Source: a virus
IMG/VR virus record: IMGVR_UViG_3300022891_000002
Coordinates: 86,361 to 150,360 of that record
Strand: one strand, 5' to 3'
DNA: 64,000 bases
Numbering within the stretch: position 1 is the stretch's first letter; each line of letters opens with the position of its first letter. The notes below the pieces were generated by a model. The model had not been told where the DNA came from. It ran no database searches and saw only the letters and a program-made list of their open reading frames with translations. The position numbers and the translations under genes were made by a program. This document shows positions 563-50,664 of this stretch, one piece after another.

Positions 563-1061
563 GACTACTATGCTCCTTCTCTTCACTTCTAATAGTTGAT
601 AAAATTTTTATGTCTAAGTCATAGACCTTATTTTGAGTAACATAACTAAGACACTTAACTAACCATAATAAGACTGAGTAATATAGATAAGCAATCTTTT
701 CTCCTTTAGTTACATAGCTTAGAAGCTCTTTAGTAGAGTAACTAGATGCTGACCTACCTCTAAAGATTAAGTAGAATAGTATATTTCTCTTACTTACCTG
801 TATATTAGTCTTAGTAACCTTACTATCTACTACTACTTTCTCTATTAGATACTTAGTAGGTATACTCCAACCTCTCTTATTCCTCAAAGCGAGGTTCCGA
901 CGAGCTAATAAACTAAACAACATTTTACTATGCTTCTTCTCATCTACTGACATCTGATAGAAGTAAGAAGAATACTCATCACCTCTCTTACTCACCTTTC
1001 TATAGAAGTTGGATAAGGAGTATTCATAAATAGCTAATTTATAATAGATATGACTTAACAA
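552..1061 (-). CDS. Ferritin-like (possible di-iron) helical protein
   Basis: 169-residue, mostly helical protein. Two ExxH-type motifs (DEKKH near residue 41 and EEKEH near 162) plus glutamates in YEYSL (near 13) and GEKIAYLYY (near 119) follow the spacing of a four-helix ferritin-like or rubrerythrin-like di-iron bundle. That assignment is inference from the motif pattern only. Its start overlaps the end of the sulfotransferase-glycosyltransferase gene by 23 nt, so the two are probably co-translated. Substrate unknown; it could also be an iron-free helical bundle. Confidence 0.45.
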   Translation of the reverse strand: MLSHIYYKLAIYEYSLSNFYRKVSKRGDEYSSYFYQMSVDEKKHSKMLFSLLARRNLALRNKRGWSIPTKYLIEKVVVDSKVTKTNIQVSKRNILFYLIFRGRSASSYSTKELLSYVTKGEKIAYLYYSVLLWLVKCLSYVTQNKVYDLDIKILSTIRSEEKEHSSHEV

Positions 1062-2772
1062 GAGTTTTTAACTTAGATACTACAACTCTCATTATAAAGC
1101 TGTAATCTAAGTCTTTTATATGTTCTAACTTAAGGTTCTTAGTAGAGAAGTAATACAAGTAGAGTCTAGTAAATACTCTCTTAAACCTTCTTGTCTCTAC
1201 TACATAACTATCTAACACCTTTTTTCCATTATTTACTTGAAGTTCCTTATTAGTAGATAGTGAGTTAGGTAGTTGTCTGTACGTAACTAAATACTCCTTA
1301 GTACATTTGAATGTTGCTACCTTAGCTAGTTGAATAAGGAAATCCCAATCTTCACATCCGTTATACTCAACATTAAACCTAATATTATGTTCTTCTATTA
1401 CTGAAGCTTTAACAAAGATATTAGAACCACAAGTAAGGAAGTTATACTCTAATGCGTCTTCATAAACATCTCCATTACAAATCTTACTATGATTCTTAGT
1501 TATTTCCCCATCTTTATCTATTAAAACTCTAGAATATACACAATCTATATAAGGATATTTTTTAAATGTAGCCACTGACTTTTCTACTAATGTTGAATCC
1601 CATACATCATCTGCATCACAGAAGGAGACAATATCATAAGGAAAAGGTAGACCTCTATTTCTAGCTTCTGAAACACCAAAATGGTTTTGAGTAAATACAC
1701 TAATTTTATATTTACTACTCTCATCTAATGAATTAATGTACTTATCTACTACTTCTAGACTACTATCTGTACTCCCATCATCTACTATCATTATGTATAT
1801 CTTCTGATATGTCTGATTAAGTAATGAAGATAGTGTCGCTTCTATGTACCTCTCCTTGTTATAAAGCGGAACTACTATAGTAACTAAAGGACTTTTCTCT
1901 ACTTCTATTATTTGTTTTTTAGTAACTAAGTCATATACATTAGTCTTCTTACTTGACTCACTAAAATAATTACTTATGTACTTTATCTCTTCCTTATGGT
2001 CATTAACTAAACTATTTACATTACTAAGTCTCTCTTTATTAACTACATCTACTTCTTTAAATAAGTTACTATGTTGTTCTTCTTCTAATACTTGAGGTAA
2101 TACTTTAGTTAGGTTACTTACTCTATTAACTAACAGACCTCGAATATCTGAATCACTTAGGTCAAGATGTAGCTCATTAACTAAGAAATTGTATAATGTA
2201 AAGTAAGCATCTTCAGTTAAACCTCTATAAGTTACGTGGAAATGGTAAGGTATAATTATGTTCTGATGATACCAACTAATTTTAACTAACTCATCTGAAA
2301 TATCTTTTCCATATACGTGTCTTTTTACTAAAGAGAGATTTGGTTCATGAGTCTTAGTAATTAAATTATGATATATATTTACTAATGATTCTTCATACTT
2401 CTCACAAGCTCCTAATATATCTTCTACCTCTAATACGTCTTTAGCTCTTAATATAGATAGAACTGTAGGAACTGGCGGGCGAGTAACATAGATAACATGA
2501 ATATCTCTCTTACATACCTTCCTCAGTTGCTCTATTATGTCTAAGTAATGTACGTGTTCAGGAGTTTTTTCTATTACTATCTCTTCTTGTATTGAATCAA
2601 AGATATTAGCTAAATATTCAATAAGGTCAGTAGGTGAGAAATTAAAAGGATTAGTTAGGCATTTAGTTTCATAAAGTATTTTAGTATTTTTCAATCCACA
2701 TAGGTAGCTTAGTAGAAGTGTAGTACCTGACCTTGGTGAACCCAAAATGAATATTAGTTTCTTATTATTCAT
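1039..2772 (-). CDS. Sulfotransferase-like / GT2 glycosyltransferase fusion
   Basis: 577 residues in two parts. The N-terminal part (about 1-280) opens with a sulfotransferase-type P-loop, FILGSPRSGTTLL (about 8-20), the PAPS phosphosulfate-binding loop of the family. The C-terminal part (about 295-530) is a GT-A fold family 2 glycosyltransferase: VTIVVPLYNKE, D331-D332-G, the metal-binding D386-A-D388-D389, and a later GCEDWDF that supplies the usual ED acid. It could add and sulfate a sugar on a glycan, a surface structure or modified DNA; the acceptor cannot be read from sequence. It lies in the operon controlled by the HigA-like regulator, just upstream of the ferritin-like gene. Phages rarely carry both activities in one chain. 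Confidence 0.8.
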   Translation of the reverse strand: MNNKKLIFILGSPRSGTTLLLSYLCGLKNTKILYETKCLTNPFNFSPTDLIEYLANIFDSIQEEIVIEKTPEHVHYLDIIEQLRKVCKRDIHVIYVTRPPVPTVLSILRAKDVLEVEDILGACEKYEESLVNIYHNLITKTHEPNLSLVKRHVYGKDISDELVKISWYHQNIIIPYHFHVTYRGLTEDAYFTLYNFLVNELHLDLSDSDIRGLLVNRVSNLTKVLPQVLEEEQHSNLFKEVDVVNKERLSNVNSLVNDHKEEIKYISNYFSESSKKTNVYDLVTKKQIIEVEKSPLVTIVVPLYNKERYIEATLSSLLNQTYQKIYIMIVDDGSTDSSLEVVDKYINSLDESSKYKISVFTQNHFGVSEARNRGLPFPYDIVSFCDADDVWDSTLVEKSVATFKKYPYIDCVYSRVLIDKDGEITKNHSKICNGDVYEDALEYNFLTCGSNIFVKASVIEEHNIRFNVEYNGCEDWDFLIQLAKVATFKCTKEYLVTYRQLPNSLSTNKELQVNNGKKVLDSYVVETRRFKRVFTRLYLYYFSTKNLKLEHIKDLDYSFIMRVVVSKLKTLVKSYLL

Positions 2773-8897: not shown

Positions 8898-9656
8898 TTA
8901 TAGGTCATACATTCTTTCCTCTACTATTTGGTAACAATCATCGTAATATCTAGCTTCTCTTTCATCTAGCATCGGATTATATTGATTCCAACATTCATCT
9001 TCTTTTCTTTCTCTTTCTACTTCACGTAACTCTTCTCGATACTCAGCTAGTTGTATTGCCCACTCTTCTAATAGCTCTCTTTTTCTTAAAGAACTGTGTC
9101 TAGGTAATTCATCATTTTCAAGGTTAACTTCATCACCGTAAAGATTTTCAAGATATTCCCATAGCAGAGGAATGAAGTATTTAGTAGAAGTCTTACTATA
9201 TAACAGCTCCTTAAATCGAGGAAACTCTTTCTCATACATCTTATAGAGCTTGTCATTATTATCAATGCTAAACTCTGTATTTACTATTCTGTCAGCTAAT
9301 TTAATAACTAAAGCTGCTTCATTATCTTTTATCTTAGGAGCAGTCTTTTCTAATATTTCTTTACGATTAGTTCCTTTCTCATTTGTAACTGCTAAAACTA
9401 AATCTGCTACTTTTTTACCAAATTGAATTAATAGAGTCTCATAAGTAGTCTCTGTATCTTCAATGGAGTCATGCAGCCAACTAGCAGCTAAAATAGTTTC
9501 ATCAGCAATTCCAAAATCTAGTAGAGTTAGGTATACTTCTTTTAGATGAACATAGTAGTCGAGTCTTTGAGGAGACCCGTCTTCGGAAGGTAGCTCCCCG
9601 TAGAACTGATTTCTATGAACTAATTTTGCGAATTCTTCAGCTCTTTTGACTAACAT
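8898..9656 (-). CDS. HD-domain hydrolase, SpoT/MESH1-like
   Basis: 252 residues. N-terminal half matches the ppGpp hydrolase-type HD domain: AKLVHRNQ (H14), H37, H62-D63-S-I-E66-D67-T, AVTNEKGTNRKE (90-100) and KLADRIVN with D122. These are the metal and guanine-site landmarks of SpoT/MESH1 enzymes. The synthetase domain is absent; the C-terminal 90 residues are charged and unassigned. It could remove (p)ppGpp or ppApp to block the stringent or toxin response of the host, or act on another nucleotide. Confidence 0.75.
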   Translation of the reverse strand: MLVKRAEEFAKLVHRNQFYGELPSEDGSPQRLDYYVHLKEVYLTLLDFGIADETILAASWLHDSIEDTETTYETLLIQFGKKVADLVLAVTNEKGTNRKEILEKTAPKIKDNEAALVIKLADRIVNTEFSIDNNDKLYKMYEKEFPRFKELLYSKTSTKYFIPLLWEYLENLYGDEVNLENDELPRHSSLRKRELLEEWAIQLAEYREELREVERERKEDECWNQYNPMLDEREARYYDDCYQIVEERMYDL

Positions 9657-12091: not shown

Positions 12092-12856
12092 CTACATCTC
12101 ACTAGACAACTTCAATATCTGCTCAATAGAACTTCTATACTCCTCTTTCATAGGTAAATCCTCATTTACCTTTAACCTTCTCCTAGTAGTCAAGACTTCT
12201 TCTTTAGTTAACGGGTTATAACCAGTCTTCTCATAAGTTTCCCAATAGATTCCAGTACCTCTTCTCTGCCAAGTAGGAACCTCATTGAAATTAATCCCAT
12301 TCTCAAATAGAAGTTCATTCTTAAACTCTCTAGTCTTCTCATCTAATATATTTGTAGCTTTTCTAGCTGAATGACCTGAACTTCTTAAAGTCCAGTAGCT
12401 ATAACCATTTAACGCACATCTTGTAGCATCAGCTTGTCTCCATAAGAAATAGTCAACTACTTGAGATTTATTAACTAAAGAAATAAGTCTACTATCAAAA
12501 CTAATTATTGAACCAGATAGATTAGTAAAAGTAGAACTAGCAATACTAGCAGAGATAGACACTAACTTCTCTACACTTCTATTAAATAAATCCCAATCTG
12601 TAGGAAATAAAATAGATATCTCATCACTTTCTGTGTAACCGTAAATTCCACCTAACTCAGTAACTAATGCTTTAGTAGTCTCAACCATCCAAGAGTGAAA
12701 CGTTAAATCAAAAGGTTTATCAAATTTAGAGTTGTAGGTAAAATTAGAAAATGAACGTCCATCTACTCTAATTACTGTATAAGTCTCAGGAAGTAATTTA
12801 AGATTGTGGAAATACTCTAATGAACGCATTTTAGCTTCAAAAACATCATTATTCAT
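12092..12856 (-). CDS. Thg1-like 3'-5' RNA polymerase
   Basis: 254 residues of the tRNA-His guanylyltransferase/Thg1-like family. Landmarks: VIRVDGRSFSNFT with D32, KPFD, YTESDEISIL with D78-E79 (the two-metal palm carboxylates), FDSRL, WRQADATRCALNGYSYW and RGTGIYW. The family adds nucleotides in the 3'-to-5' direction using ATP- or GTP-activated 5' ends. In a phage, plausible jobs are repair of truncated tRNA 5' ends after host nuclease attack or editing. No tRNA gene is visible nearby. Confidence 0.85.
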   Translation of the reverse strand: MNNDVFEAKMRSLEYFHNLKLLPETYTVIRVDGRSFSNFTYNSKFDKPFDLTFHSWMVETTKALVTELGGIYGYTESDEISILFPTDWDLFNRSVEKLVSISASIASSTFTNLSGSIISFDSRLISLVNKSQVVDYFLWRQADATRCALNGYSYWTLRSSGHSARKATNILDEKTREFKNELLFENGINFNEVPTWQRRGTGIYWETYEKTGYNPLTKEEVLTTRRRLKVNEDLPMKEEYRSSIEQILKLSSEM

Positions 12857-27747: not shown

Positions 27748-28476
27748 TCAGTAATAAGAAGGAAGATTTTGATTATCTAACTCAAAAAAGGCAGGCATTA
27801 CGTAATTGGCTGTGTCTGATAATTCAGAGGCAACTCCTTGATATAGCAATGTGTCGCTAGATTTCAACCACACATCAGGAAAACCGAACTTACCAGGAGA
27901 ATTTAGAGTTTCTACAATCCACTCTACAGTACGTTTACGTAAACTATCAAGCGATTTAGAATAGCTATATCCTAAGTCCGCAGCAATTTGTCTGTTAGTA
28001 GAGACGTGAATATTTTCATCGTTAGAAATATCACGACTAACTAATCTTAAACCTGCGTCACCAAATTTACGGAGGATAGGAAGGATTACAAAAAATACAC
28101 TATTCTCAATCACCCAAGCTTTTACTACTGGGTGGTCAGGATGGTCAATCCATTCTTTAGTTATAATACTCGCTTCATTCTCCATATTCTCATCTGTCAA
28201 CTGATATACAGAATGAGCCATATTTAAGACTTCATCGTGACGAAATTCATCTTCAATATTAGATTGCAATAGTTTAATAGCATCCTCGGATAGTCTTGAC
28301 ATCTCACGTTTACATCCTAATAGAATCCAATCTCCTACAGGAATTTCTAATGTTCGTAACGCGATTGCACGTCCAATAGTTTCTTCTGACCCTTCCATTA
28401 CGGGAGATGGTTTACCGACGTTAGGTGTCCAAGGCTTCTTTTTAGCCAATAATTCAGAATAGAATGTATTTGTCAT
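27748..28476 (-). CDS. nrdB: Ribonucleotide reductase, class I beta-like subunit
   Basis: 242 residues, shorter than typical NrdB (about 320-375). Di-iron ligands are all in place: E44, E77-x-x-H80, E124, D153-E154-x-x-H157. In E. coli NrdB the radical Tyr122 follows the first ExxH by four residues; here that residue is Leu84 (E77-F-R-H80-D-E-V-L84), so no ordinary tyrosyl radical can form. It may use a Mn/Fe cofactor as in class Ic or another scheme. The C-terminus ends in two tyrosines (NQNLPSYY) that could relay radical transfer. Followed in expression order by the 71-aa gene; the alpha subunit lies upstream. Confidence 0.85.
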   Translation of the reverse strand: MTNTFYSELLAKKKPWTPNVGKPSPVMEGSEETIGRAIALRTLEIPVGDWILLGCKREMSRLSEDAIKLLQSNIEDEFRHDEVLNMAHSVYQLTDENMENEASIITKEWIDHPDHPVVKAWVIENSVFFVILPILRKFGDAGLRLVSRDISNDENIHVSTNRQIAADLGYSYSKSLDSLRKRTVEWIVETLNSPGKFGFPDVWLKSSDTLLYQGVASELSDTANYVMPAFFELDNQNLPSYY

Positions 28477-28503
28477 TATTTTATATTTTATAGTTAGTTA
28501 GCG

Positions 28504-29880
28504 TTATTCAGCACAAGAAGTACATAACCCATCAAGGTTACACGACTCTACAGCAGTTGAAATATTATCCTCTGTGATTACACGACTCTTATCTAGAAAA
28601 TCTTGCTCAATAGGTAAACGATAGTAAGTAGTTTTAAGTGGAGATGCCAACCAATCTGCAATGAAATCTTTATCTACTGTACAAGTGTTCCAAATGTTGA
28701 AACTAATCGCATGAGCCAAACCTGTTCTATCCATCATACTTTGCCATGCTTTCATCAATCGATATTGAACATCCCAACCAACCTCTCTTGCTGTTTCACC
28801 TTTAGGGTTATGTTCATAATTTGTAACTCCAAAAGTACCGCTATCCCGGTCAACTATATTGTTAATTGGAGGGCTAATTTCTGGAGCAGTAGTAAACATC
28901 TCTCTGTCACGGTTACGATAAGCCACAGAGGCAGTAGGAGCAATTGTAAAAGCACGTTGCATCCCATGTTTACACGCTACAATCTTAGCTTTATCAAACC
29001 CCTCTAATAAAGCATCTACAATAGCAACAGCATTAGATGATAGGGAAGTAGATGAATTTTCAATATTGTATACTCTATTTTCTAACGCATCTACAAACTC
29101 TGAATATTTAACTTCTTCAATAGCGAGCAAATTAGCTAATCCTAACACTCCTAAACCCACTTGCTTATCCTCGTTAGGTGATAAATATAATCCTTGTTTA
29201 TCCACACCAGTTTGAGGATGTAACTCACATAGAAATTTCATTCCATCTTCAAAAGCCTGGGCAATTTCATCAATCTTACACTTACCTAAATTAGTGTGGG
29301 AAAGTAGGCAAGAAGCTCTAGACGAAATTATTATTTCCATGCACACGTTAGAGTAGAGACGATTACCGTCTTTATCCCATTGTTTCTTAGCTAACCATAC
29401 TGACCCGTCTCTAACTTTCTGAATAATAAGGTCAATATGAGGTGATTCTAATAAATTTTCATCTACATACAGAGATTTCTTAGCCCAAGGTAAATCTTTA
29501 GGAGTAGCATTTAAAAAATCAACTAGGTCACTGTGATTGTAATCGAGATATACAACAACAGCCCCATTCTTATAGATACCTCCACGTCTTAGAATCTCGT
29601 TGAGTTGGCTATAGATTTGAGCAAAACTAACTGCACCACTCGCAACCAAACCTTTGCTATTAGTCGTACCTTTTGAACGTATATTAGACAAGTTAATTGC
29701 CACACCAGCACCATATCTTAGAGCGCCACTGGTAAATAACCAACTTTGTTCAATCCCGTCTTTCCCTTCCATACTATCTTGCACATCAAACACGGTACAG
29801 GATACTGGAAGCCTGCCATCTGGGTTTTTCATCCAATCAGATACGCGACCTGTAACAGCAATATTTTTAGGTTTTTTCAT
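28504..29880 (-). CDS. nrdA: Ribonucleotide reductase, short class I-type alpha subunit
   Basis: 458 residues, against about 700-850 for most class I alpha chains; no ATP-cone is visible. Active-site landmarks: C28 (PVSCTVF), N178-x-C180-x-E182, C191 (SCLLSHTNLG), the tyrosine pair Y419-Y420 (TTYYRLP) that relays the radical in class I enzymes, and C453/C456 near the end (CTSCAE) for re-reduction. The tyrosine pair and the adjacent beta gene argue for class I rather than class II. Reduces ribonucleotides to deoxyribonucleotides for phage DNA synthesis. Gap to nrdB is 27 nt. Confidence 0.88.
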   Translation of the reverse strand: MKKPKNIAVTGRVSDWMKNPDGRLPVSCTVFDVQDSMEGKDGIEQSWLFTSGALRYGAGVAINLSNIRSKGTTNSKGLVASGAVSFAQIYSQLNEILRRGGIYKNGAVVVYLDYNHSDLVDFLNATPKDLPWAKKSLYVDENLLESPHIDLIIQKVRDGSVWLAKKQWDKDGNRLYSNVCMEIIISSRASCLLSHTNLGKCKIDEIAQAFEDGMKFLCELHPQTGVDKQGLYLSPNEDKQVGLGVLGLANLLAIEEVKYSEFVDALENRVYNIENSSTSLSSNAVAIVDALLEGFDKAKIVACKHGMQRAFTIAPTASVAYRNRDREMFTTAPEISPPINNIVDRDSGTFGVTNYEHNPKGETAREVGWDVQYRLMKAWQSMMDRTGLAHAISFNIWNTCTVDKDFIADWLASPLKTTYYRLPIEQDFLDKSRVITEDNISTAVESCNLDGLCTSCAE

Positions 29881-29884
29881 AATT

Positions 29885-30100
29885 CTATTTCTCTTCTTTA
29901 ATTGGTAAGTAAGTATTTACAATCCCGGCAGTAAAATCAGTCAAACCTAGCTGTATCAATTTCTCTTTTACATAACTTCTATCAATTTTTTTATACTTAA
30001 CCGACACTAACTCGTTTTGTTCAAATTCATACAAAGCTTCAAGAACTAACCAGATTCCTTCATATTGACCAGAGAAGAAAGCAATTGTAGCACTATCCAT
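29885..30100 (-). CDS. Hypothetical protein, 71 aa
   Basis: Related to the gene upstream: RSYVKEKLIQLGLTDFTAG here and KKYVIDKLTELELTEYVEP there. Directly upstream of nrdA in the same operon. Not recognised. Confidence 0.6.
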   Translation of the reverse strand: MDSATIAFFSGQYEGIWLVLEALYEFEQNELVSVKYKKIDRSYVKEKLIQLGLTDFTAGIVNTYLPIKEEK

Positions 30101-30112
30101 TTAGTTAACCTC

Positions 30113-30463
30113 TCAGCTCACTAATAAATCGTTTGTATCTAAATAGTCTTGTACTAAATCTAGAATCTTGGAAGCTAAAGGTAATTTCCCCTGTACATAA
30201 GATTCATCACCTTTATAGGGATTATTAGTAATAAGCTCATTAGCTATTAGTAAAGCTATTTTCTTTTTTAACTCCTCTTTAGTTATCTTGTAGTAGTTAT
30301 TAATGATTGGTTCGACATACTCAGTAAGTTCTAATTCAGTTAATTTATCAATTACGTACTTTTTAGTTGGATAGACAGTAAACCCATCTTTCTCACTAAG
30401 TTGTTGCAATACTTCCATTACACCTTCTACTTTGGCAGATTCATAGTTACTCATCTCATTCAC
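30113..30463 (-). CDS. Hypothetical helical protein, 116 aa
   Basis: Helical: VEGVMEVLQQLSEKDG, VIDKLTELELTEYVEPIINN, ELKKKIALLIANELIT. Shares a motif with 29885-30100, so they are likely paralogues. Separated from the polymerase gene by about 100 nt with no gene. Confidence 0.55.
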   Translation of the reverse strand: MNEMSNYESAKVEGVMEVLQQLSEKDGFTVYPTKKYVIDKLTELELTEYVEPIINNYYKITKEELKKKIALLIANELITNNPYKGDESYVQGKLPLASKILDLVQDYLDTNDLLVS

Positions 30464-30564
30464 CTACACTGGTTTTGATATTTTAACGTTCTTATATTAG
30501 TAGATTACGACTGATAAGCTATTCATTATTCTCTAAGTCTTTCTATTAGGTTTGTTTATGACGA

Positions 30565-32715
30565 TTATTTCTCATTCCAATTTTTACAAGTTAGTTTGTT
30601 AGGGTCAAAACATACATCTACCGGAATTGACTTAATCCAGTATCTCAATTCAGTATGTAAACAATTCATTACTGCACTATTAATCTCAAATGAATATTCA
30701 GATAAACCAATCCAGTTAAGTTCATCGTGGCAGTTATTACAAAATCTAGCTTTCCAATGAGGATTATTAAAGAACTCTATCTCTGCTTTACCTTGAGCAA
30801 ATTTAAGAATATCTGCTTCTCCACAGAGCCAAATTAGAGAAATAGAATCTGTATAAGGAACTTCATAAGTAGTATAGGTTTTACCTGTTTTAGTTGTAAA
30901 AGTCTTCTCTTGCTTTTTTAAATGTACCGTTCTATTAGTAAAAGTCTTACATTTACCGTAATGCCCTGAAGTAGGTTGACCATTAGCATTAAAGAAAGGG
31001 AATTCTATATTATACTTGTTACACTCTTTAACATAGTTTTGGATAAATTCGTAGAGTACATTATAAGTTTTTCTATAAGCTTGCTGAATTAATTTACATT
31101 GTTCTTCACTTACTTCTACCCCATTCTTTCTAAAGCTTGTTTGTATAGTTTTAGCTCCTGCCTGATTGAGACCTGAGTAATTAGCTTCCTTCCCGAACTT
31201 CCTGTACTTAGATATTAGTGGGTCAGGATTATCTTGTTTATATAAAGTTACTGCTTCGTCATACCCAAAATTGTGACCATCATAAATAGCAATAGAGTTA
31301 CCCATAATAATATGAGCATCTTTACCATTACCATAAATCTCTAATAATGTGGGGTCTTTAGATAATTCAGTACAGATTCTATAGTGACTCTGACTTAAAT
31401 CCATAATTCCCAAAAAATAACCTTCTGGGGCTTTAAAGAATGTTCTAAAGTCAGGTAATCCTTCTTCTTTAAAAAAACTTGGTGTTTTAGCTGGGTTCTG
31501 AAGTTGAGCGCCAATGTTAATAGCTTTCTTACTTCCCTTAGAATTTTTGTATTTTAAAGTACCATTACAACTTGACCTACCTGAACCTGAAGGAGTCATT
31601 TGTCTATAATTAGTACGAACAGAATAGAAGTCTTCCTCAGGATTCTTCCAAGCTACATCTCTTATACCTTCTGCATATTGAATAAGAACGTTCAAAGTCC
31701 TCATCCTTAGTAGAGCTTTAGCTTCTGGATACTTAACTCTTTTTAGTGCTTCTACGTCTAATGACTGTAATTTAAGCTCCGGCCATTTCTCATTAAAAGC
31801 TTGTCTTAGTAACTCTACTTGTCCCCAATTTACATCTGGAAAACTAACTGTGATAATCTCTTTATATTCTTCTAACTTTTTCCTATACTCAAAAACATTC
31901 TTTTCTAATAAATCCTTATCAATAGGAAAACCAAATACTTCCATTTCAATAAAAGCAGGAAGTACAAGAGATTCTGCCATTACGGAGTAATATAAGTCTT
32001 CTCTTATAACTAACTCCTGAATATATGGAAATAATTGTAGAGGTAAGATTGAGTCATTTCCTGAATAATTATACTTAGCATTTGAAATTCTCCATCCCCA
32101 ATCTTCTTTCTGTTCACTCTTATCTATTTCAAATTTAGTGTTGAAAAGAATGTTTACTCGTTCAGTAATAGCTTTAAGAGAGTGAGATAATAAACATCTA
32201 TCTTCTCTATTTTTAGATTTATTACCAGGGATTACTTCTACTCCTGCCCAAATTACTTGCGAACATAACATTAAATCTCTACAGCACAGTATTTTAATAC
32301 CTAAATGGTAGAGTAGAAAGTTACCATCAAACTTTAGATTAACCCCTACTACCGGGACTTTTAGATTCTCACATCTCTCTTTAAATACTTGGTAGAATCT
32401 ACTAGCAAAAAACTCTTTCTTCTTTTCATCTATATTATCTAAGTTTCCACCTAAATCATATATTAGTGCATAATATTGACCATCTACCTTGATTCCTACT
32501 GAGATAAGTCTTATTAACCCAAACTTAAAATATAATGCGCTATATTCTTCGTCACCATGAGTTTCTAAGTCAGTAGAGAATATCTTAGCAACTGAGAACT
32601 TATCTACCCATTCATTCCATACTTTATCTTCTACTTTGCCATGAACAATTATATTTGGCTCAAGAGGAACATCTTTTGCTAGTATATCTGACCACTTTAA
32701 CTGTAGAGTTTTCAT
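30565..32715 (-). CDS. Family A DNA polymerase
   Basis: 716 residues. N-terminal 3'-5' exonuclease: D49-L-E51 (exo I), NLKFDGNFL (exo II) and YSGNDS (exo III). Polymerase palm and fingers: motif A D439-L-S-Q-S-H444-Y-R, motif B R505...K509...Y513 (RKFGKEANYSG), motif C H663-D664-E665. Y513 equals E. coli Phe762; Tyr there, as in T7, usually gives fast, low-discrimination synthesis. H444 replaces the steric-gate Glu710 of E. coli Pol I. The replicative polymerase of this phage. Confidence 0.93.
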   Translation of the reverse strand: MKTLQLKWSDILAKDVPLEPNIIVHGKVEDKVWNEWVDKFSVAKIFSTDLETHGDEEYSALYFKFGLIRLISVGIKVDGQYYALIYDLGGNLDNIDEKKKEFFASRFYQVFKERCENLKVPVVGVNLKFDGNFLLYHLGIKILCCRDLMLCSQVIWAGVEVIPGNKSKNREDRCLLSHSLKAITERVNILFNTKFEIDKSEQKEDWGWRISNAKYNYSGNDSILPLQLFPYIQELVIREDLYYSVMAESLVLPAFIEMEVFGFPIDKDLLEKNVFEYRKKLEEYKEIITVSFPDVNWGQVELLRQAFNEKWPELKLQSLDVEALKRVKYPEAKALLRMRTLNVLIQYAEGIRDVAWKNPEEDFYSVRTNYRQMTPSGSGRSSCNGTLKYKNSKGSKKAINIGAQLQNPAKTPSFFKEEGLPDFRTFFKAPEGYFLGIMDLSQSHYRICTELSKDPTLLEIYGNGKDAHIIMGNSIAIYDGHNFGYDEAVTLYKQDNPDPLISKYRKFGKEANYSGLNQAGAKTIQTSFRKNGVEVSEEQCKLIQQAYRKTYNVLYEFIQNYVKECNKYNIEFPFFNANGQPTSGHYGKCKTFTNRTVHLKKQEKTFTTKTGKTYTTYEVPYTDSISLIWLCGEADILKFAQGKAEIEFFNNPHWKARFCNNCHDELNWIGLSEYSFEINSAVMNCLHTELRYWIKSIPVDVCFDPNKLTCKNWNEK

Positions 32716-32989
32716 ATGTATACCTATCTACTGTTTTCCAGAAATCTTTTGCATAAGAATAAGGAGACTCACCTACTACAAATATGTCCATACTTTCTCC
32801 GTTTAAATAGATACACCCTGAGTAAGGAGCATCGCAATCATCACCATACTGACTCTCTACTTTACAGACAAATCCCGCGTAATGTAAATCTTGGTTACAA
32901 AAATCTCTTTGCCATCTTATTAGCTCATCTATACCTACTAAGTTACTTAAATACTCTCGAATATCTTTGTGTTCTAAATTATTACTCAT
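32660..32989 (-). CDS. Hypothetical Cys-containing protein, 109 aa
   Basis: Contains FCNQDLHYAGFVCKV, DDCDAPYSGCIYLNG and ends in RYTSKRCSS. Overlaps the polymerase start by 56 nt in another frame. Separated by 50 nt from the divergent Acb2-like gene. Unknown. Confidence 0.55.
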   Translation of the reverse strand: MSNNLEHKDIREYLSNLVGIDELIRWQRDFCNQDLHYAGFVCKVESQYGDDCDAPYSGCIYLNGESMDIFVVGESPYSYAKDFWKTVDRYTYENSTVKVVRYTSKRCSS

Positions 32990-33039
32990 CTTACTTCTCC
33001 TTATATGTTAAACTTTATTAGTTCCAATCAATTAGTTAC

Positions 33040-33294
33040 ATGACTCCTAAATTTTTGACCAAGTTAGAAGACTTATTTAGCTACCATCCTCCTAAGACTG
33101 ATGAAGAAAGAGAACAACATAACGTAGTCAACCAAGCATCTATTGAATACGCAAAGTCACTAGCTCAAGTAGTAAAAAATCCTGCTGAGCTAACTACTAT
33201 CCTTAGAGAAATTCAAAAGGTACGTATGTTAGCCAATGCTTCTGTATGTTACGAACGAGTAGGTATTAATTATCGAGACTTGTTCTCTGAGTAA
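33040..33294 (+). CDS. Acb2-like cyclic-nucleotide sponge (anti-CBASS)
   Basis: 84 residues on the plus strand, alone within a minus-strand region. F13-S-Y15-H-P-P at 13-18 and a helical hairpin, NQASIEYAKSLAQVV then ELTTILREIQKVRMLANASV, match the Acb2/Vs.4 family (pattern F-[TS]-YHPP...; ..KVxEAVMWANAxI). Acb2 proteins form hexamers that bind CBASS and Thoeris cyclic dinucleotides or trinucleotides; Tyr and Lys of the N-helix contact the ligand, here likely Y15 and a nearby Lys (K19). The WANA tryptophan is replaced by Leu (MLANASV). The terminator behind it and its own promoter region point to separate, early expression. Confidence 0.65.
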   Translation: MTPKFLTKLEDLFSYHPPKTDEEREQHNVVNQASIEYAKSLAQVVKNPAELTTILREIQKVRMLANASVCYERVGINYRDLFSE

Positions 33295-33310
33295 GGTTAG
33301 TAAGAGAAGG

Positions 33311-33349
33311 CCTCTAGAGTTTATTAGTAGTTCTAGAGGATTCTTCTTT
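33311..33349 (+). terminator. Terminator after the Acb2-like gene
   Basis: Perfect 8-bp stem CCTCTAGA/TCTAGAGG (33311-33318 and 33332-33339), 13-nt loop, then a T-rich tail ATTCTTCTTT. It stops plus-strand transcription and may also serve the convergent gene. Confidence 0.75.
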
Positions 33350-33355
33350 ATCTAC

Positions 33356-33769
33356 TTACTTCAGGAACTCTTCTTCTATAATGTCTGCTATTTGTTCAAA
33401 AGATAATTTAAATCTATCATTGAGACTAATCAATGATACCTGCTCTCTATCTATATAAGACATACCTACTTTCTCCATCTGATACATAGGTAACTTAGAA
33501 TTAGTAGTTTTTATCAGAACATTATTACAGTCAATACCTAGATAACCTAACATTGAGTTAGGAAGTACGCCACTACTACCACTAAACATATAACACTCTT
33601 TATCTGTAGGCTCCAGATTCCAATCAATACCTAAGTCTTTCTTACTAATATCACAAAAGACTCCTAAGCAACAAAACTCATCATTTATATTCCTAAGTGC
33701 TTTTCTTCCTTGCTTGTATTTACCACTTCTTAAAGCATCTACACATTTCTGAATCCTTTCTCTATTCAT
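33356..33769 (-). CDS. Conserved phage hypothetical (ALRSGKYKQG family)
   Basis: Start set at the ATG at 33769 (MNRERIQKCVDALRSGKYKQG). Blocks ALRSGKYKQGRKALR, FCCLGVFCDI, W, LPNSMLGYLGI and SLNDRFKLSFEQIADIIEEEF match a widespread small family in phages and cyanobacteria whose role I do not know. Confidence 0.65.
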   Translation of the reverse strand: MNRERIQKCVDALRSGKYKQGRKALRNINDEFCCLGVFCDISKKDLGIDWNLEPTDKECYMFSGSSGVLPNSMLGYLGIDCNNVLIKTTNSKLPMYQMEKVGMSYIDREQVSLISLNDRFKLSFEQIADIIEEEFLK

Positions 33770-34205
33770 TGTCTTGTCCTCCCTCAGAACAATCAAACCA
33801 ACTAATTAGATAAGACACACTTTCAGGTGTTAGTTTATAACCTAAGATTTCTTCTCTGCTATCAAACCATGCACCTCTAATACTACTTCCCCAAGTCAAA
33901 TACTGAATAAGGAACTGAACATAAACAATGTAAGTGTATTGCAACTCTTCATCATCAGGAAAAAGATAGTTTTGATTTGGCTTAGTAGGTACATCTTTCT
34001 TGTTATGGAAGTAATGAATACTCTTGATAATGTCCAATATGTATTCCCCAATCTCTAAACTAAAGTCATCACAGTAAGTAGTTAAGTCTAAAACCTCATC
34101 AACTAGGAAAATTAGTCTTTTTTCCCTTTCTGTATATTCATCAGGTTTAGATAAGCCCCAAACATAAAGGAAGTCTTCGTAACTATCTTTATGAGTAATA
34201 TTCAT
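33762..34205 (-). CDS. Hypothetical protein, 147 aa
   Basis: Helical (TYCDDFSLEIGEYILDIIKSIHY; YTYIVYVQFLIQYLTWG) with an acidic end. Overlaps both neighbours. Not recognised. Confidence 0.6.
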   Translation of the reverse strand: MNITHKDSYEDFLYVWGLSKPDEYTEREKRLIFLVDEVLDLTTYCDDFSLEIGEYILDIIKSIHYFHNKKDVPTKPNQNYLFPDDEELQYTYIVYVQFLIQYLTWGSSIRGAWFDSREEILGYKLTPESVSYLISWFDCSEGGQDNE

Positions 34206-34675
34206 TGATTGTCACACATCCATCTATATAACTCCGTAACTCTTTCAATAGCTAGCTCTAAATCCGGGTCATTTTTATATCTCATTTCACTAATATGAGC
34301 AGATACTCCGTTTCTATACTGCATTCTTTTATAATCATCCATTAGATACAAGTACATAAACTTAGCAATATTATCTAAAACATTAACACTGAAGAAATTA
34401 GCTAATGAAGTTAGTGATTCATAAAAGACTATCTGAACTTGCATCCACATAATCTCAAAATGTTCTTTCATAGTTATCTCCTTGTAAGTAGTTGTCCAAT
34501 TGTAAAACTCAATCCACAAGTCAGCTAACTCAAAATCAAAATCTATTCTCAACTCACGAATTCTTAAAGCTGCATTATTTCTAGCTTCTAATCTTTCTGA
34601 TTCACACATCCCTTTATAAGCCGTCTTCATCAGCCAAAGAGATATAGACTTAGCAATCTTATCTAGTAAAGTCAT
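34202..34675 (-). CDS. Internally duplicated helical protein, 157 aa
   Basis: Two diverged repeats: LLDKIAKSISLWLMKTAYKG...LADLWIEFYNW (about 3-62) and VLDNIAKFMYLYLMDDYKRM...AIERVTELYRW (about 98-153). Suggests a symmetric helical fold. Function unknown. Confidence 0.6.
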   Translation of the reverse strand: MTLLDKIAKSISLWLMKTAYKGMCESERLEARNNAALRIRELRIDFDFELADLWIEFYNWTTTYKEITMKEHFEIMWMQVQIVFYESLTSLANFFSVNVLDNIAKFMYLYLMDDYKRMQYRNGVSAHISEMRYKNDPDLELAIERVTELYRWMCDNQ

Positions 34676-34950
34676 TATTCAACATTAAACGCATCATATT
34701 CGTCAATCCATTCACAGGCAAACTTAATTATCTCCTCTACTGAGAGATGAATGTCTATTACTTGATTAACTGACCTACCATACTTATAAATCCCAACATC
34801 ATAGATACCTTCTTGTCTTGGGGTTACGTAGATTTCGTACTCTTTGTACTGTACTAATTCCTCTTTTCTATTATCTTTGACTCCAAAAGCACATTTAACA
34901 ATATTACCTAAAGCATTTTCTAAGTATTTATTTAAGTAATTCATGTTCAT
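34675..34950 (-). CDS. HicB-like paralogue, 91 aa
   Basis: VQYKEYEIYVTPRQEGIYD, IDIHLSVEEIIKFACEWIDEYD. Paralogue of the next gene upstream. HicB-like strand order but diverged. Unknown function. Confidence 0.5.
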   Translation of the reverse strand: MNMNYLNKYLENALGNIVKCAFGVKDNRKEELVQYKEYEIYVTPRQEGIYDVGIYKYGRSVNQVIDIHLSVEEIIKFACEWIDEYDAFNVE

Positions 34951-35188
34951 CTACCCAAGTACGTCCTAACATCTCTACTATATCTCTAGTATCGTCGTCA
35001 TCACCTACCCCTCTACATACTTCTTTTCCATCTTTATTGACTTGCATAAAATAATATTTCTTCCCTGAAGTTCTCCACATAGCAGTTGTACATATCTCAT
35101 AATCTTTGTAGATAAAACATTGAGGTCTATCTTCGTGGTTATTTTCTGAAATAAACTGTTTTACTCTTCTCAACCAAACTTCTAACAT
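34928..35188 (-). CDS. HicB-like paralogue, 86 aa
   Basis: CFIYKDYEICTTAMWRTSG, YYFMQVNKDGKEVCRG, then IVEMLGRTWVDEHELL: same plan as 34675-34950. Overlaps that gene by 23 nt. Function unknown. Confidence 0.5.
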   Translation of the reverse strand: MLEVWLRRVKQFISENNHEDRPQCFIYKDYEICTTAMWRTSGKKYYFMQVNKDGKEVCRGVGDDDDTRDIVEMLGRTWVDEHELLK

Positions 35189-35211
35189 GAGTAACTCCTA
35201 TTCTTAGTAGA

Positions 35212-35237
35212 AGTGGGCATAATCAAGTACACCCACT
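35212..35237. other. Intercistronic hairpin AGTGGG/CCCACT
   Basis: 6-bp stem (35212-35217 and 35232-35237), loop 14 nt, between the Sak3-like gene and the next genes downstream. No U-run on the minus strand. Confidence 0.45.
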
Positions 35238-35248
35238 AATAAAATAAA

Positions 35249-36043
35249 CTATTGTGCTTTTCTTGCTTTCTGTGCTTCTATAGCTGCTTCAATCTCTTTC
35301 TTGAGGTCATTAGCTACTTTGTTTAGCATTAGAATAGAGCTACCAAAGTTAACTATTTTCTTATCTACTTCTCTTCCAAGTCTAGTAGAACTTTTAATAA
35401 TCTCATCTATCTTCTTGAACTTATCGCTTTCTGTAGTAGAACCTTTACCTACATCTTCCCTAGTAAATATCCTTAGAGCTAGACCTGTATTAAGAGCAAT
35501 TACCTTAACAGCAGCTCTCATACAGCTATCATTGATGTCTCTAATATCTGGATTGTAAACTGCATCATTAGTGTTACTCATTACCGGGAATAACATAGAA
35601 GGAGTTCTAAGTCCTGTAACTACATCTACTAAGTAAGGCATAACTGCTACACCTCTATTGTCATAGTAGAGTTGGTCACTATACTCAGCAATCTCTTTCT
35701 TAAGACTCTTCTCTTTCTTCCAATCTTTCTCTTCTTTTAAGAGTTCTTGCTTTTCTACTATTAATTGTTCAAACCTGTCTTTAGCTTCCTTTTTAAGATT
35801 GTTCTCTAGTTTAAATGTAAGTAATCCACTACTATTTCTTTCAAATTCTACTACTAGATTAGGAAAATAACGCATTAGAAGATTCTTAGCAGCGCTCCAA
35901 CTTAGATATTCTAGCTCTCCTTGACCAGGTTTAACGTAGATGTGGTAAGCATAGTCGTAGTTATCGTAAGCAGCTATAAACTCTTCTTTTGAAATACTTA
36001 GATATACTGGTGTGGTTTGACTCATTTCATTCATCTTGTTCAT
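35249..36043 (-). CDS. Sak3-like (DUF1071) single-strand annealing protein
   Basis: 264 residues. LEYLSWSAAKNLLMRYFPN (about 44-62), RGVAVMPYLVDVVTGLRTPSMLFPVMSNTN and INDSCMRAAVKVIALNTGLALRIF match the DUF1071/Sak3 recombinase pattern (YvSWa.A, LPVMd..N, IN.A.MR.LvKaIAm.GLGL.iy). A long coiled coil (KDRFEQLIVEKQELLKEEKD) is inserted in the first half. Anneals complementary ssDNA; pairs with the PD-(D/E)XK nuclease at 39809. Confidence 0.75.
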   Translation of the reverse strand: MNKMNEMSQTTPVYLSISKEEFIAAYDNYDYAYHIYVKPGQGELEYLSWSAAKNLLMRYFPNLVVEFERNSSGLLTFKLENNLKKEAKDRFEQLIVEKQELLKEEKDWKKEKSLKKEIAEYSDQLYYDNRGVAVMPYLVDVVTGLRTPSMLFPVMSNTNDAVYNPDIRDINDSCMRAAVKVIALNTGLALRIFTREDVGKGSTTESDKFKKIDEIIKSSTRLGREVDKKIVNFGSSILMLNKVANDLKKEIEAAIEAQKARKAQ

Positions 36044-49905: not shown

Positions 49906-50664
49906 CTAAGAACCAAATCCTAACTCAATCGCGTTCTCAATTACAGGTAGAAAGTCTACTGGGTAGCAAGCTATGGGTGCGGTCTGCTGTTTACCACTCT
50001 TGTCTACATAACGTTTAACTGTTTGAGCAGGTTTTTTCCCTGTTAGATTCCTATAACCAACCGCTGAAAACATTCCTATGGCTCTACGTTCATCATTACT
50101 AAATTCTCTGTCATAACGGGCAAGTACGTCATCTAATGTTAGAAATCCGGGCAAAGCTTTCTCATTCTCTGGATTAATTGCAAAGTTATTAATTCGTTCC
50201 TGGCCGGGTTTATCTGCTGCGTACTCCATAACAGCAATCATTTTTCCCATATACTCATGTGCCTGTTTAGCTCGTTCTAACTCTGTTTGTGGTTTAGGTT
50301 TTTCATAACCAGAGACTTCTTGAAACCATGCACGAATACCTACGGCAGCAAAAGCCCTAAATAATGTAAGTGCTACTTCTGATTTATCTTGAGCATCAAA
50401 AGCATAGTATTCTATTATACATTGAACAGCTACGTCTGGAATACCGTTTGAAAGCTTCCGGTCTACACCTAAGAACCCTTTAGCAGTAAGTGTTTCAGCT
50501 AATTTTTTAGCCATACGGTCTACACTTAAAACACTTCGGGAAATACCTAGAAGCTCAGCTAAACCTTTCTTTGTAATACTGGCTTTCCCTTCTTTATCTA
50601 CAGTAATCTCACTACGGATACCTTGAAGAACTTCAGTCATCTGAGAACTAAGATTGTTAGTCAT
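49906..50664 (-). CDS. KilA-N/BRO-like phage regulator, 252 aa
   Basis: N-terminal part (about 12-120): DKEGKASITKKGLAELLGIS, DVAVQCIIEYYAFDA, LTLFRAFAAVGIRAWFQ, paralogous to 41031-41381. C-terminal part: TLDDVLARYDREFSNDERRAIGMFSAVGYRNLTGKKP, VKRYVDKSGKQQTAPIACYP (Bro-C/KilAC-like inference). Has its own strong sigma70-like promoter, so likely an early regulator. Confidence 0.65.
   Translation of the reverse strand: MTNNLSSQMTEVLQGIRSEITVDKEGKASITKKGLAELLGISRSVLSVDRMAKKLAETLTAKGFLGVDRKLSNGIPDVAVQCIIEYYAFDAQDKSEVALTLFRAFAAVGIRAWFQEVSGYEKPKPQTELERAKQAHEYMGKMIAVMEYAADKPGQERINNFAINPENEKALPGFLTLDDVLARYDREFSNDERRAIGMFSAVGYRNLTGKKPAQTVKRYVDKSGKQQTAPIACYPVDFLPVIENAIELGFGS

What the first reader, a model, noticed from the sequence alone, without database searches (positions are those of the whole stretch)
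33040..33294. Acb2-like cyclic-nucleotide sponge, alone on the plus strand
An 84-aa protein with the FSYHPP start and the ELTTIL...KVRMLANASV helix pairs with the Acb2/Vs.4 anti-CBASS family. It has its own terminator and is set against the surrounding minus operons, as an anti-defence gene expressed early would be. The WANA Trp is Leu, so ligand or oligomer contacts may differ.
Basis: partly seen in the sequence, partly recalled or inferred. Interest (0 to 1): 0.8.

Follow-up and report, generated by a model that had tools for sequence, protein, structure and literature searches.

The report
Cyanophage variant of Acb2 nucleotide sponge
A virus that probably infects cyanobacteria carries a small protein of the Acb2 family, which soaks up the nucleotide alarm signals of bacterial immunity, but in this branch of the family the positively charged residue found in all other members examined is replaced, so it may catch a different signal.

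Summary
Window 33040-33294 (+) is a real 84-aa gene, alone on the + strand, with a terminator-like hairpin at 33311-33339. It is conserved at the same place in a related phage (83% aa, dN/dS about 0.12) and occurs, in a different setting, in a second phage lineage (63-75% aa). Pfam's Acb2_Tad1_hairpin matches at E 9.4e-6, just under its cut-off (26.2 of 27 bits). A profile built without these sequences scores 47 bits, against 9 for the best of 2000 shuffles. Family profiles reach solved Acb2 and Tad1 structures. The predicted fold is a short N-helix and a long helical hairpin; 11 of its 12 best viral structural matches are named 'Acb2/Tad1 hairpin'. The striking change: the basic residue that is Arg in 146 of 146 relatives and Lys in T4 and p26 Acb2 is Asn in all five clade members, which also carry Arg62, seen in 0 of 146, at about the facing position of the hairpin. 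Best reading: an Acb2-type cyclic-nucleotide sponge with a remodelled pocket. Ligand, hexamer, early expression and host defence target are untested.

The parts
33040..33294 (+). 84-aa Acb2/Tad1-hairpin protein, putative cyclic-nucleotide sponge
   Evidence: ORF; PF24729 residues 14-69, E 9.4e-6; PHROG 1454; family HMM built without this clade 47.4 bits; AlphaFold2 pLDDT 88, helices 3-13, 21-44, 48-74, 78-81
33076..33093 (+). FSYHPP motif (residues 13-18); Y15 aligns with T4 Acb2 Y8, needed for cyclic-dinucleotide binding
   Evidence: Alignment; Y8A loses binding in T4 (PMC12657218; PMC12657230)
33130..33132 (+). codon for Asn31, in place of a basic residue (Arg in 146 of 146 relatives, Lys in T4 and p26 Acb2)
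   Evidence: p26-T4 alignment
33223..33225 (+). codon for Arg62, found only in this clade (0 of 146 relatives have R or K); by hairpin register about opposite residue 31
33247..33285 (+). C-terminal extension CYERVGINYRDLF (residues 70-82), near-identical across the four close members and absent from most short family members
33006..33021 (+). TGTTAAACTTTATTAG, conserved upstream with L001 (TGTTAAACTCTAATAG); possible promoter element in the 50-bp gap to the divergent gene
   Evidence: not repeated in the window above chance; no proof of promoter function
33311..33339 (+). intrinsic-terminator-like hairpin just after the gene, possibly bidirectional
   Evidence: conserved in L001

Best explanation
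The gene encodes a sponge of the Acb2 type made of a short N-terminal helix and a long two-helix hairpin. Six copies would assemble and bind, without cleaving, the cyclic nucleotide signals that host immune enzymes make during infection, so that the effectors stay off. Shown here: real gene, family membership, predicted fold. Inferred from the family: hexamer, binding, anti-defence role. In this cyanophage clade the pocket looks rebuilt: Tyr15 is kept, the family's basic residue at 31 is Asn, and Arg62 (and Arg56) plus a conserved C-terminal tail with Tyr71 may supply the charge and stacking instead. The ligand range may therefore differ from that of T4 or Pseudomonas phage Acb2.
For: Pfam and PHROG matches; non-circular profile test with 2000 shuffles; hhalign 97%, E 3e-11. 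Family profiles reach 9ptq 'Acb2 homolog 43' (E 1.1e-5, 7.2e-7 and, without this clade, 9e-8) and Tad1 chains (E 0.0018 with the first profile; 0.01-0.05 with the others). AlphaFold2 hairpin, pLDDT 88; BFVD neighbours Acb2/Tad1 hairpin, best TMq 0.75, rmsd 1.3 A; T4 Vs.4-cGAMP among PDB matches. Tyr15 aligns with T4 Y8, a tested binding residue. Strong purifying selection and presence in two phage lineages that look unrelated fit a portable counter-defence gene.
Against: The Pfam score is 0.8 bit under the gathering cut-off, and L002 and L235 score lower still. The basic residue that is conserved in every other member sampled and aligns with p26 K26 is lost. T4 F82, whose change to Cys reduces binding, aligns with Cys70, and T4 T68, whose change to Met lowers binding affinity, aligns with Arg56. 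Foldseek E-values are weak, as expected for a short helical hairpin (best 7e-3 viral; over 1 for Vs.4). No host, hexamer or ligand data.
Confidence: 0.72

Rival explanations
1. A sponge for another class of signal (cyclic ADP-ribose isomers of Thoeris, or mainly cyclic trinucleotides), not cyclic dinucleotides.
For: Loss of the basic residue at 31 and Cys at the T4 F82 position argue for a changed dinucleotide pocket; the fold family also includes Tad1, which binds gcADPR (PMC12043709); the first profile also matches Tad1 chains.
Against: Tad1's N-terminal beta-sheet domain is absent: no strand is predicted and 84 aa leave no room. Tyr15, the dinucleotide-binding Tyr, is retained.
Confidence: 0.17
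2. A family member that lost nucleotide binding and was reused as a small structural or regulatory protein, or as a decoy.
For: Substitutions at three positions tied to binding or conserved in T4 or p26: 31, 56 and 70.
Against: FSYHP, N66, R62 and the C-terminal tail are under strong constraint in two phage lineages; the gene occurs in phages that look unrelated, as anti-defence genes do.
Confidence: 0.09
3. Chance similarity: an unrelated helical hairpin.
For: Short helical protein; sub-threshold Pfam score; weak Foldseek E-values.
Against: 47 bits against 9 for the best of 2000 composition shuffles, hhalign E 3e-11, FSYHPP and AN at the conserved positions.
Confidence: 0.02

Closest known systems
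Acb2 (T4 Vs.4, PDB 7uq2; Pseudomonas phage p26, PDB 8h2j; 'Acb2 homolog 43', PDB 9ptq)
   Same: Short protein, N-helix plus helical hairpin, same Pfam family, Tyr of the ligand pocket kept (T4 Y8 = Y15).
   Different: Asn31 for the basic residue, Arg56 for T4 T68, Cys70 for T4 F82, Leu64 for W76, Arg62 new; C-terminal tail of its own; only about a third or less identical.
PHROG 1454 type Acb2/Tad1 hairpin proteins of actinobacterial and Paenibacillus/Brevibacillus phages
   Same: Closest large branch: F-x-Y-H-P start, ANA near the end, similar length; up to 36% identity in tblastn.
   Different: All sampled have Arg at 31 and none has Arg or Lys at 62; most end a few residues after the ANA motif.
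Arthronema virus TR020 (cyanophage) ORF at 35812-36039
   Same: Same N31 and R62; groups with this clade in the quick tree (support 93).
   Different: About 30% identical, lacks the C-terminal tail, lies beside capsid genes; annotated 'putative protein disulfide-isomerase'.
Tad1 (Thoeris anti-defence 1)
   Same: Shares the helical hairpin by profile.
   Different: Tad1 has an added N-terminal beta-sheet domain, absent here.

Membership tests
Acb2/Tad1 hairpin (PF24729) | Score above the Pfam gathering threshold (27 bits) | tested here: inconclusive
   26.2 bits, E 9.4e-6, i.e. 0.8 bit short; L001 25.4, L002 16.3; L235 none
Acb2/Tad1 hairpin (PF24729) | Homology to the family by a profile not built from this clade | tested here: met
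   47.4 bits, E 1.7e-13; best of 2000 shuffles 9.2 bits; hhalign 97%, E 3e-11
[quoted passage not shown]
   Predicted helices 3-13, 21-44, 48-74, 78-81, mean pLDDT 88.3
Acb2 | Structural similarity to Acb2 models and structures | tested here: met
   BFVD best TMq 0.75, rmsd 1.3 A, 11 of the top 12 named Acb2/Tad1 hairpin; 7uq2 found but with weak E-value, TM about 0.5
Acb2 | Pocket Tyr (T4 Y8, p26 Y11) | tested here: met
   Y15
Acb2 | Conserved basic residue of helix 2 (T4 K23, p26 K26, Arg elsewhere) | tested here: not met
   Asn31 in all clade members; R in 146 of 146 others. A conserved trait of the sampled family, not a published definition of it
Acb2 | Homohexamer | not testable with these tools
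   No multimer prediction offered; PDB entries 7uq2 and 9ptq hold 6 chains each
Acb2 | Binds cyclic di- or trinucleotides and blocks CBASS | not testable with these tools
   needs protein and phage assays
Tad1 | N-terminal beta-sheet domain before the hairpin | tested here: not met
   84 aa, no strands predicted

The most novel reading that the evidence does not exclude
A cyanophage branch of Acb2-type sponges whose nucleotide pocket has been rewired: the otherwise invariant basic residue is moved across the hairpin (31 to 62) and a conserved C-terminal tail closes the pocket, to catch an immune nucleotide of cyanobacteria that known sponges do not favour.
Probability: 0.25. Interest if true: 0.65.

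Novelty: new variant of a known kind. Interest (0 to 1): 0.42.

Why it matters
It extends Acb2-type immune sponges to a distinct branch in phages that probably infect cyanobacteria, seen in two phage lineages that otherwise look unrelated, and it points to one residue pair (31 and 62) that could control which immune signal a sponge catches. The binding test is simple. A matching ligand would also hint at which nucleotide signals cyanobacterial defence uses.

Tried and rejected
Tad1 membership: rejected, no beta domain. Mediator and leucine-rich-repeat PDB matches of the single-sequence search: chance. TssG, Cry-domain and IL31 Pfam matches: sub-threshold chance. TIM-barrel design matches of the profile: helix composition in repeats. 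A repeated promoter motif: the upstream TGTTAAACT element is not repeated in the window above chance. Cellular relatives: none in two genome scans, though only exact-peptide candidates were tested; none in plasmids. PADLOC: no match, as it holds defence proteins. Other known anti-signal genes in the same record: no Tad2-like or 2H phosphoesterase family match; a weak, sub-threshold MazG match. Terminase family PHROG 2 gave no match in the three related records and odd matches in the control genomes, so it told nothing. The careful tree did not finish, so only the quick tree is used. Model coordinates are not given, so the 31-62 facing is argued from helix register only (hairpin turn at 45-47, so positions summing to about 92 face each other).

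Full report
WHAT IS THERE. Window 33040-33294 on + holds an ATG ORF of 84 codons. The window is the end (86361-150360) of a 150,360-base virus record, and the gene is the only PF24729 match in it. Gene-like ORFs from 20634 to 49832 otherwise lie on -. The gene starts 50 bases from a divergent - ORF and is followed by a hairpin with a T-rich tail at 33311-33339, the only terminator-like site in 30000-36000; the fold has z -2.8. The stem also folds on the - strand, so it may serve both directions.

IS IT REAL. Three close relatives were found in viral contigs. L001 (146.5 kb record) has the gene at 83% aa identity in the same place, with the same neighbours and a matching hairpin. It also shares the portal (85%) and AAA helicase (95%). 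L002 and L235 (188.6 and 188.9 kb records) carry it at 75% and about 63% identity with different neighbours and no detectable portal or helicase relative. There too it stands on + next to - genes; a conserved TGATATAAT element lies upstream, and L002, but not L235, has a strong hairpin downstream. Against L001, dN is 0.117 and dS 0.94; against L002, pN is 0.17 while synonymous sites are nearly saturated. So it is a conserved protein-coding gene shared by two phage lineages that otherwise look unrelated.

WHAT IT IS. Pfam: Acb2_Tad1_hairpin over residues 14-69, E 9.4e-6, 26.2 bits against a cut-off of 27. PHROG 1454, E 2.7e-7; T4 Vs.4 also touches that PHROG (E 7e-4) and matches the Pfam family at 7e-20. 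To avoid circularity, a profile was built from 141 diverse viral members without this clade: P0001 scores 47.4 bits, E 1.7e-13, while the best of 2000 shuffles scores 9.2. hhalign of the four-member clade against 26 others gives 97%, E 3e-11. Family profiles reach the solved 'Acb2 homolog 43' (9ptq) at E 1.1e-5, 7e-7 and 9e-8, and Tad1 chains at 0.0018 with the first profile and 0.01-0.05 with the others. [quoted passage not shown] PMC12043709). Structural matches in BFVD are led by Acb2/Tad1 hairpin proteins (best TMq 0.75, rmsd 1.3 A). In the PDB, Vs.4 with cGAMP appears with TM about 0.5 but a weak E-value.

WHAT IS UNUSUAL. In an alignment of 146 relatives outside the clade, residue 31 is Arg in all 146 and Lys in T4. 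The T4-p26 alignment puts that Lys opposite p26 K26; that K26 contacts the ligand is from my memory of the Acb2 papers, not tested here. A review states that the pocket holds a salt bridge to the phosphates. In this clade, and in the distant Arthronema cyanophage protein, it is Asn. One of the three scans that gathered relatives used query peptides that do not include residue 31, so that part of the Arg conservation is not a search artefact. The same five proteins (P0001, L001, L002, L235, Arthronema) all have Arg at 62, where none of the 146 has Arg or Lys. Residue 62 should lie about opposite 31 across the hairpin, judged from helix register. Further changes: T4 T68, whose change to Met lowers binding affinity (PMC12657230), aligns with Arg56 (Arg also in 40 of 146). 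T4 F82, whose change to Cys reduces binding (PMC12657218), aligns with Cys70, next to Tyr71. T4 Y8, needed for dinucleotide binding, is kept as Tyr15. The four close members also have a near-identical tail, CYERVGISYRDLF, that most short members lack. A quick tree puts the five on one side of a long branch, support 93; the careful tree was not finished, and two long branches (T4, Arthronema) make placement uncertain.

HOST. Best phage matches are cyanophages: portal to Pseudanabaena phages PA-SR01 and Pam2, AAA helicase to the same two, DNA polymerase to Nodularia phages. L002 carries a thymidylate synthase-like protein with a DUF4346 domain, which I know as mainly cyanobacterial. So a cyanobacterial host is likely but not shown.

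HOW IT LIKELY WORKS. By family analogy it binds and holds cyclic nucleotide signals of CBASS-like defence, without cutting them, so effectors are not triggered. The retained Tyr and strong constraint favour this. The lost basic residue and new Arg suggest a changed ligand range. Thoeris-type signals or trinucleotides are the main rival, and loss of binding a lesser one. Solitary expression from its own promoter is plausible; early timing is not shown.

VERDICT. A true member of a known family, forming a distinct cyanophage variant. The general idea is already known; the 31/62 swap is the part worth a bench test.

Noticed in passing
27748-29880; L001 175-1479: At the same genome position the window phage has a compact class I-type ribonucleotide reductase (458-aa large, 242-aa small subunit), while the related phage L001 has part of an adenosylcobalamin-dependent (class II) reductase: an apparent swap of reductase class.
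   Followed up: partly
12092-12856 (-): Phage gene for a tRNA-His guanylyltransferase (Thg1 and Thg1C domains, E 1.9e-31) in a window without detected tRNA genes.
   Followed up: no
8898-9656 (-): 252-aa protein with the HD hydrolase part of RelA/SpoT (HD_4; TIGR00691 E 1.4e-13), possibly a phage (p)ppGpp hydrolase.
   Followed up: no
49906-50664 (-): 252-aa protein whose first half resembles the N-terminal part of the phage-defence replication inhibitor BstA (PADLOC E 4.4e-10, PHROG 6287 E 4.4e-9).
   Followed up: no
1039-2772 (-): 577-aa protein with an N-terminal sulfotransferase-like stretch and a family 2 glycosyltransferase domain.
   Followed up: no
L004 3001-3228 (MT457475.1 35812-36039): The Acb2-like protein of Arthronema virus TR020 lies under a gene annotated 'putative protein disulfide-isomerase', whose annotated start cuts off the N-terminal FKYHPP part; several Paenibacillus and Brevibacillus phage members are annotated 'phosphomannomutase'.
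   Followed up: partly
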